A stretch of 32,037 nucleotides of DNA. Origin: Acidobacteriota bacterium. Lineage in GTDB: Bacteria; Acidobacteriota; Blastocatellia; HR10; JACQTD01. The stretch covers positions 1 through 32,037 of the forward strand of contig JACQTD010000140.1 in NCBI GenBank assembly GCA_016210985.1, in the 5' to 3' direction. Below are positions 21,144 through 21,415 of the stretch, in pieces. The notes under the pieces were generated by a model that saw only the letters and a list, made by a program, of their open reading frames with translations, did no database searches and had not been told where the DNA came from. The translations under genes and the position numbers were made by a program. The first letter of the stretch is position 1; every line of letters starts with the position of its first letter.

Positions 21144-21194
21144 GAAACGAGAAACCCACCGCCAGGGTTGGTCCGACAGTGGGTTTCTTGTTTC
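21144..21194 (-). terminator. Terminator-like attenuator hairpin in cysK leader
   Basis: In the minus-strand RNA, GAAACAAGAAACCCACUGUCGG pairs with CUGGCGGUGGGUUUCUCGUUUC (about 22 bp, one mismatch, a few G-U) around loop ACCAACC; 3' arm is U-rich. Confidence 0.7.
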
Positions 21195-21267
21195 TCTTTC
21201 CTGAACTTTGATTAGTGAAAAGTCATTCAAAGTCTCGGGCGCCACTACCGGCAGTTGGGTTTGAAGA

Positions 21268-21354
21268 TCAACAGCAGCAACATCGAATGCCGATGACGCC
21301 AGTGCAGAAGCCACTGGGCTGAACTCGAGCGCCCATCGAATGTGAAGTATTCAT
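21268..21354 (-). CDS. Putative 28-aa cysteine leader peptide MNTSHSMGARVQPSGFCTGVIGIRCCCC
   Basis: ATG at 21354-21352 to TGA at 21270-21268; last four codons TGT TGC TGC TGT, directly upstream of a hairpin and cysK. Confidence 0.75.
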   Translation of the reverse strand: MNTSHSMGARVQPSGFCTGVIGIRCCCC

Positions 21355-21386
21355 AATGCCTGACAGGTACCGGTTAGAAGATGGAA

Positions 21387-21415
21387 CTTTTACCTTCTCA
21401 GGGGAAATCTGTCAA
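21387..21415 (-). promoter_or_regulatory. Putative sigma70 promoter for cysK leader
   Basis: Minus strand TTGACA (21415-21410), 17-bp spacer, TAAAAG (21392-21387). Confidence 0.6.

What the first reader, a model, noticed from the sequence alone, without database searches (positions are those of the whole stretch)
21144..21415. Unannotated poly-cysteine leader peptide and attenuator in front of cysK
Minus strand upstream of cysK, seen directly: TTGACA-17 bp-TAAAAG; a 28-codon ORF MNTSHSMGARVQPSGFCTGVIGIRCCCC ending TGT TGC TGC TGT TGA; then a long hairpin (21194-21144) with a U-rich 3' arm; then GGAGGAG and the cysK ATG. Five nt after the leader stop, AAACCCAACUGCCGG (21262-21248) can pair with CUGGCGGUGGGUUU (21165-21152), the 3' arm of the hairpin, so the two structures are mutually exclusive. 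This matches ribosome-mediated attenuation: stalling on Cys codons would leave the antiterminator free, while a ribosome at the stop codon would block it and allow the terminator. Polycysteine leader ORFs acting as cysteine-responsive attenuators are reported in mycobacteria; this genome encodes a BshB1-like bacillithiol enzyme and does not look mycobacterial. The leader is absent from the supplied ORF track because it is short.
Basis: partly seen in the sequence, partly recalled or inferred. Interest (0 to 1): 0.86.

Follow-up and report, generated by a model that had tools for sequence, protein, structure and literature searches.

The report
Cysteine-sensing leader attenuator before cysK
In front of a cysteine-making gene of an uncultured bacterium lies a tiny cysteine-rich gene and an RNA switch that very probably turns the gene on only when cysteine runs short; the same switch recurs in front of other sulfur genes across the Acidobacteriota, a phylum in which I found no published switch of this kind.

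Summary
In detail: minus strand, TTGACA-N17-TAAAAG, a 28-codon ORF ending CCCC-stop, a 23-bp hairpin with a U-rich arm, then an SD and cysK. It is not chance. The same genome carries a second copy (leader ..CCCCC..) before cysH of the sulfate-assimilation operon. All ten held genomes of the order carry the element directly before a cysK/cysM-type gene. About 20 more Acidobacteriota sites have Cys-run leaders, mostly before cysH, sulfite-reductase-like or siroheme genes.

The competing helix is region 2 (21251-21242) with the terminator's 5' arm (21182-21173).

It matches no Rfam family. Cys-codon leaders are known in mycobacteria and, with an intrinsic terminator, before cysS in Rhodobacterales, so this is a new family of a known kind. 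Relatives with His, Trp and perhaps Met codons hint at a re-used switch core. Nothing here is experimental.

The parts
21387..21415 (-). promoter-like TTGACA-N17-TAAAAG; the same hexamers and spacing stand before the paralogous cysH leader
   Evidence: read; paralog; TTGACA plus a TA-rich hexamer also visible in order-mates. No transcription start was measured
21268..21354 (-). leader ORF MNTSHSMGARVQPSGFCTGVIGIRCCCC* (an alternative start is Met7)
   Evidence: Cys-rich leader ORFs at the same position in homologs
21271..21282 (-). four regulatory Cys codons TGT TGC TGC TGT, directly before the TGA stop (also region 1 of a possible 1:2 hairpin)
   Evidence: 0/20000 shuffles of the intergenic region have Cys4-stop; Cys runs kept while flanking residues vary in homologs
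21242..21251 (-). region 2, CCGGUAGUGG: antiterminator strand
   Evidence: identical in the cysH paralog; 10 perfect pairs with region 3; covariation p<5e-5
21205..21233 (-). small hairpin between regions 2 and 3; a hairpin of different sequence sits at this place in the cysH paralog
   Evidence: folds
21173..21182 (-). region 3, CCACUGUCGG: part of the terminator 5' arm that pairs with region 2 in the antiterminator
21142..21196 (-). intrinsic terminator hairpin (regions 3:4), 23 pairs, U-rich 3' side (UUUCUCGUUUCUC)
   Evidence: -36.6 kcal/mol, z -6.5; terminator-like hit; U run longer in homologs
21120..21126 (-). Shine-Dalgarno GGAGGAG of cysK, outside the hairpin
20147..21115 (-). cysK, cysteine synthase A: the regulated gene
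   Evidence: NCBIfam TIGR01139 425.7 bits (cut-off 350.95); Pfam PF00291

Best explanation
A cysteine-sensing, ribosome-mediated transcription attenuator of the trp/his type. RNA polymerase starts near 21380 and a ribosome translates the 28-codon leader. If Cys-tRNA is scarce the ribosome stalls on the Cys codons and covers the upstream leader RNA. Region 2 is then free and pairs with region 3 as soon as region 3 emerges, so terminator 3:4 does not form in time and cysK is transcribed. If cysteine is plentiful the ribosome reaches the stop and leaves, the freed leader RNA (including the Cys-codon strand) ties up region 2, the terminator forms and transcription stops before cysK. A second copy in the same genome does the same for the cysH-sulfite reductase-siroheme operon. 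Shown: the anatomy, its recurrence before cysteine and sulfur genes, and covariation of 2:3. Inferred: transcription start, translation of the leader, stalling, termination and the response to cysteine.
For: Anatomy. Paralogous copy with CCCCC leader, same promoter hexamers and identical regions 2 and 3 before cysH in the same genome (downstream genes identified). Homologs directly upstream of the cysK/cysM-type gene in all nine other held genomes of the order (coordinates) with Cys-rich leaders. Further Cys-run leaders before uroporphyrinogen-III methyltransferase (family f4 and G013), before cysH (family f25, runs of up to 7 Cys codons) and before sulfite/nitrite-reductase-like genes. Cognate 2:3 pairing exceeds permuted partners in 31 sites and in 17 chosen representatives (0 of 20000 each), 2:4 does not (p 0.81, 0.75). 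Nascent-RNA folding: P(2:3) 0.97 with the leader masked, 0.09-0.12 with the leader free. Distance from Cys run to region 2 is mostly 14-26 nt.
Against: No expression, Ribo-seq or term-seq data; the genome is an incomplete assembly (79%, 347 contigs). In the window alone the 2:3 duplex is not significant (128 of 1000 shuffles do as well), so support for it is comparative. At equilibrium the terminator always wins once region 4 is complete, so the switch must be kinetic. The window's U-tract is interrupted and weaker than in homologs. The specific 1:2 hairpin is only weakly populated (P 0.08-0.24). Closest cysK protein orthologs in other classes lack the element.
Confidence: 0.87

Rival explanations
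1. Same leader and stalling, but control is mainly at translation: the hairpin or a long-range pairing near the ribosome binding site hides the cysK start, as in mycobacterial polycysteine leaders.
For: In order-mates G003 and G005 the gene starts within about 15 nt of the hairpin. In the window an upstream CCGG..CUGUCAGG strand can pair with CCUGAUCGGCCGG just before the SD.
Against: In the window the SD 21126-21120 lies outside the hairpin. The conserved object is a GC-rich stem followed by a U run, i.e. an intrinsic terminator, in nearly all sites.
Confidence: 0.08
2. A cysteine leader with the reader's 2:4 pairing (21262-21248 with 21165-21152) as the antiterminator.
For: The duplex is stable in the window (-21.8 kcal/mol).
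Against: It must compete with the adjacent, more stable local hairpin 3:4 after both strands exist; cognate 2:4 pairing is no better than permuted partners across 31 sites (p 0.81); AAACCCAACUG is not kept in the cysH paralog.
Confidence: 0.03
3. A plain terminator of the upstream flavoprotein gene (21482-23047) plus a chance Cys-rich ORF.
For: The hairpin is a good terminator by itself.
Against: It lies about 285 nt past that gene, behind its own promoter-like sequence. The Cys run plus hairpin recurs before cysteine and sulfur genes in unrelated neighbourhoods.
Confidence: 0.01
4. A metabolite riboswitch or T-box with an incidental ORF.
For: Structured leader upstream of a biosynthetic gene.
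Against: No Rfam family matches here or in the homologs. The conserved elements are Cys codons and the 2/3/4 switch; the spacer sequence is variable.
Confidence: 0.01

Closest known systems
Ribosome-mediated transcription attenuators of the trp/his type (enterobacterial trp, his, leu, thr leaders; general knowledge)
   Same: Leader ORF with a run of codons for the pathway's product; mutually exclusive 2:3 antiterminator and 3:4 intrinsic terminator; biosynthetic genes downstream
   Different: The sensed amino acid is cysteine; different phylum; no detectable sequence relation (no Rfam hit); in many homologs the leader frame runs through region 2
uORFC-8-2 motif upstream of cysS in Rhodobacterales (PMC8632094)
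   Same: Cys codons in a short uORF, two stems, terminal intrinsic terminator, inferred stalling on Cys codons
   Different: There it stands before the tRNA synthetase gene cysS with two tandem Cys codons; here before cysK/cysM, cysH, sulfite reductase and siroheme genes with mostly 3-7 Cys codons; Acidobacteriota
Mycobacterial/actinobacterial Cys-run leader peptides (PMC1262725; PMC4633059; Canestrari et al. 2020, cited in PMC13236596 and PMC9094748, its text not held)
   Same: Cys codons clustered near the end of a short ORF before cys genes; regulated pathway
   Different: PMC1262725 found no conserved terminator hairpins there; the mycobacterial ORFs are leaderless; here a sigma70-like promoter gives a short 5' UTR and a conserved intrinsic terminator is present
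Unassigned predicted attenuators of Acidobacteria (PMC2965389)
   Same: Premature terminators were predicted in this phylum
   Different: That study says almost none of the Acidobacteria predictions had an associated function; here sensor codons, gene set and covarying antiterminator are given

Membership tests
Ribosome-mediated transcription attenuator (trp/his type) | short leader ORF with a run of codons for the end product | tested here: met
   CCCC in the window; CCCCC before cysH; Cys clusters in 27 tabulated sites
Ribosome-mediated transcription attenuator (trp/his type) | intrinsic terminator between leader ORF and structural gene | tested here: met
   window; cysH copy; homologs
Ribosome-mediated transcription attenuator (trp/his type) | antiterminator that uses the 5' arm of the terminator and excludes it | tested here: met
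   2:3 covariation, 0/20000 permutations for 31 sites and for 17 representatives;
Ribosome-mediated transcription attenuator (trp/his type) | alternative pairing that frees the terminator when no ribosome is stalled (1:2 or equivalent) | tested here: inconclusive
   free leader RNA lowers P(2:3) to about 0.1, but the specific 1:2 hairpin has P of only 0.08-0.24
Ribosome-mediated transcription attenuator (trp/his type) | downstream genes make the sensed amino acid | tested here: met
   cysK, cysH, siroheme genes by NCBIfam; sulfite/nitrite reductase by Pfam
Ribosome-mediated transcription attenuator (trp/his type) | read-through depends on charged tRNA | not testable with these tools
   needs reporter or in vitro transcription-translation
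Mycobacterial polycysteine leaderless sORF | leaderless transcript starting at the sORF start codon | tested here: inconclusive
   promoter hexamers predict a start about 25 nt before the ATG; no TSS data
Mycobacterial polycysteine leaderless sORF | no intrinsic terminator (as reported in PMC1262725) | tested here: not met
   strong terminator hairpin present
uORFC-8-2 motif | found exclusively upstream of cysS in Rhodobacterales | tested here: not met
   the gene is cysK in Acidobacteriota
Rfam families (T-box, amino-acid leaders, riboswitches) | covariance-model match | tested here: not met
   no match at the leader or at homologs

The most novel reading that the evidence does not exclude
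Acidobacteriota own a modular attenuator family: one RNA core (region 2 about CCGGYRGUGG, terminator about AACCCRCUGYCGG) that was copied in front of different biosynthetic operons and re-coded with Cys, His, Trp or Met codons, so that one switch serves several amino acids. Evidence: the Cys models also retrieve His-rich leaders before hisZ, Trp-rich leaders before DAHP synthase and trpE, and a Met-rich leader before a metY-like gene. Common descent is not shown, since the search itself selects similar terminators.
Probability: 0.35. Interest if true: 0.72.

Novelty: new member of a known kind. Interest (0 to 1): 0.58.

Why it matters
It gives a function, a sensed amino acid and a testable switch to attenuators in a large, poorly characterised phylum where predicted attenuators had almost no assigned function (PMC2965389). 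It defines a probable cysteine regulon (cysK/cysM, cysH, sulfite reductase, siroheme) controlled at the RNA level. It adds a second lineage in which cysteine is sensed by leader translation coupled to an intrinsic terminator. It also supplies a covariation-based correction of the antiterminator that an experiment can test with four mutant constructs.

Tried and rejected
(1) cysK orthologs by protein (54-68% identity) searched for the leader: none. The cysK tree is the wrong guide; the RNA itself was the right query. (2) MTWMRLRICSIRMCC before cysK in genus g65 looked like a Cys leader but reads an upstream protein-coding gene in another frame: rejected. (3) CCC-stop ORF before an oxidoreductase gene at C225 lies inside a cysteine desulfurase gene: rejected. 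(6) Single-sequence shuffles for 2:3, 2:4 and 1:2 in the window: not significant or marginal on their own. (7) UGU excess in leaders (100 UGU: 42 UGC) against downstream genes (8: 45; Fisher p 3e-12): recorded but not used as proof, since downstream genes carry their own codon bias and I did not calibrate against non-coding DNA. (8) Some weak model hits (for example L202, L207, L208, L218, L235, L236) show no matching leader and are taken as terminator look-alikes.

Full report
Observation. The hairpin is 23 bp, 21196-21142, -36.6 kcal/mol, z -6.5. Cys4-stop does not occur in 20000 shuffles of the intergenic region. cysK is a true cysteine synthase A by NCBIfam.

First comparative attempt. The best cysK protein orthologs (63-68% identity, in other classes of the phylum) have no such leader. 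Two apparent Cys leaders turned out to be frame artefacts inside coding genes. At this point the element looked unique.

The paralog. A DNA search with the intergenic region found a second copy in the same genome, contig C26 (E 4.6e-9, 73% over 114 nt). It stands before cysH (phosphoadenylyl-sulfate reductase), followed by a TauE-type permease, a sulfite/nitrite reductase, a siroheme synthase and a tetrapyrrole methylase. Its leader is MPTLQRQSTTTLQPICLAQDPGMFACCCCCASDHRPVVASGALHDR*. The promoter hexamers and spacing are the same. The segments CCGGTAGTGG and CCACTGTCGG are identical, and the terminator ends in GGTGGGTTTTTCTTTTT.

The family. A covariance model of the two copies found homologs in the class, and a model of twelve found more in the class and phylum. 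In all nine other held genomes of the order the element lies directly before a cysK/cysM-type gene: compare element coordinates with the gene coordinates for G001 C148, G002 C18, G003 C4, G004 C13, G005 C305, G006 C27, G007 C2, G008 C5 and G009 C17. The leaders keep Cys clusters while neighbouring residues change, for example MAMCCCCRARDGSPAVAFVS, MVMCCCPWPRSGSPAVAFVS and MAMCCCRRTWDGSPAVAFVS. All eight held genomes of family f4 carry it, seven before uroporphyrinogen-III methyltransferase and G029 before a small protein annotated here only by its sequence. Seven of eight genomes of family f25, in another part of the phylum, match the model; in the six inspected the leader has 6-7 Cys codons, and readable cysH frames follow in several. 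G003 and G005 have further copies before sulfite/nitrite-reductase-like genes. No Rfam family matches any of the leaders tested. Order-mates match proteins named 'Blastocatellia bacterium', so the host is taken to be Acidobacteriota, class Blastocatellia (inference).

Which pairing is the antiterminator. In nascent RNA ending before region 4 the window folds into CCGGUAGUGG:CCACUGUCGG, ten perfect pairs. This is region 2 with the 5' arm of the terminator, the classical 2:3. Over 31 Cys sites the cognate 2:3 energies sum to -558.9 against -471.0 for permuted partners (0 of 20000 permutations reach it); with 17 representatives chosen to thin out close relatives, -308.6 against -258.7 (0 of 20000). 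A fixed-register count on 12 sites agrees (p 5e-5 for 2:3, 0.65 for 2:4). In the window alone neither duplex is remarkable, so the claim rests on comparison. The permutation keeps column make-up but not full relatedness; the thinned set is the guard against that.

Mechanism. With the upstream RNA covered by a ribosome on the Cys codons, P(2:3) is 0.97 once region 3 is out, and it stays near that until about three bases of region 4 have emerged, dropping to 0.7 and then to near zero as region 4 is completed. With the whole leader RNA free it is 0.09-0.12. In the cysH copy and most homologs the leader frame continues through region 2, so there a moving ribosome would mask it directly (inference). 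The gap from Cys run to region 2 is mostly 14-26 nt, outside the footprint of a ribosome stalled in the run. At equilibrium the complete terminator always wins, so the decision must be kinetic, as in other attenuators of this type. Transcription start, leader translation, stalling and termination are inferred.

What is known. Cys-codon leaders before cys operons were described in Mycobacterium and relatives without conserved terminators (PMC1262725), seen by ribosome profiling (PMC4633059) and later reported as cysteine-responsive (Canestrari et al. 2020, known here only through citing papers). A Cys-codon attenuator with an intrinsic terminator was predicted before cysS in Rhodobacterales (uORFC-8-2, PMC8632094). 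For Acidobacteria, a survey found that predicted attenuators had almost no assigned function (PMC2965389). Literature searches in the held open library found nothing on cysteine attenuation in Acidobacteria; subscription papers are not covered. The element is therefore a new RNA family of a known kind.

Beyond the finding. The same models retrieve leaders with His runs before hisZ (for example MNLRTHHHQAHHHAHHHGRRGS.., L234), with Trp before DAHP synthase (..AAWYWWSVNVGG..) and trpE (..NRYYWWYR*), and a Met-rich one before a metY-like gene. They share the region 2/terminator core, but because the search selects for that core, common descent is open.

Limits. Unnamed draft assemblies; E-values of the home-made models are rough; leader start codons are not determined; no experiment.

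Noticed in passing
L212, L229, L231, L232, L233, L234 (also L166, L168, L170, L175, L177): His-rich leader ORFs with a similar region 2 and terminator directly before hisZ (ATP phosphoribosyltransferase regulatory subunit) in class genomes of family f5; looks like a His attenuator family in Acidobacteriota.
   Followed up: partly
L200, L230 (DAHP synthase); L204, L209, L182 (trpE-like): Trp-containing leaders (AAWYWW.., NRYYWWYR, CWWRVR.., ANWYWR) plus terminator before aromatic amino acid genes.
   Followed up: partly
L214 (G360:C449): Met-rich leader MAMAMRGPTGGGGALM with terminator before a metY-like O-acetylhomoserine sulfhydrylase gene; possible Met attenuator.
   Followed up: no
L162-L165, L191, L195-L199, L201, L205, L206, L211, L213, L216, L217, L226-L228 leaders: Leaders prefer UGU (100 UGU: 42 UGC) while the genes behind them prefer UGC (8: 45). 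Cause unknown: slow decoding, RNA structure, or simply absence of the coding bias.
   Followed up: partly
window 19678-19732 (-); L160:7502-7534 (-): Acido-Lenti-1 RNA (RF01687) above the gathering score in the window between cysK and a DAO-type oxidoreductase gene; a weaker match (24 bits) lies upstream of the cysH leader on C26.
   Followed up: no
window 21372-21358 with 21139-21127 (-): The 5' end of the leader transcript (CCGGUACCUGUCAGG) can pair with CCUGAUCGGCCGG just before the cysK SD in the minimum-energy fold of the whole leader; meaning unknown.
   Followed up: no
G000:C47:23633-23644 (-), L081: The only other Cys4-stop ORF found in this genome (LRMTRRYRRPLLCCCC), 59 nt before another frame; probably chance.
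   Followed up: no
window 14287-18345 (+) and 22905-24299 (-): Large proteins with many CxxCH motifs (multiheme cytochrome-like); not analysed.
   Followed up: no
window 29512-31682: Transposase-like frames (IS3-type pair at 29512-30465 -, and an IS630-like frame at 30597-31682 +), named from the sequence only.
   Followed up: no
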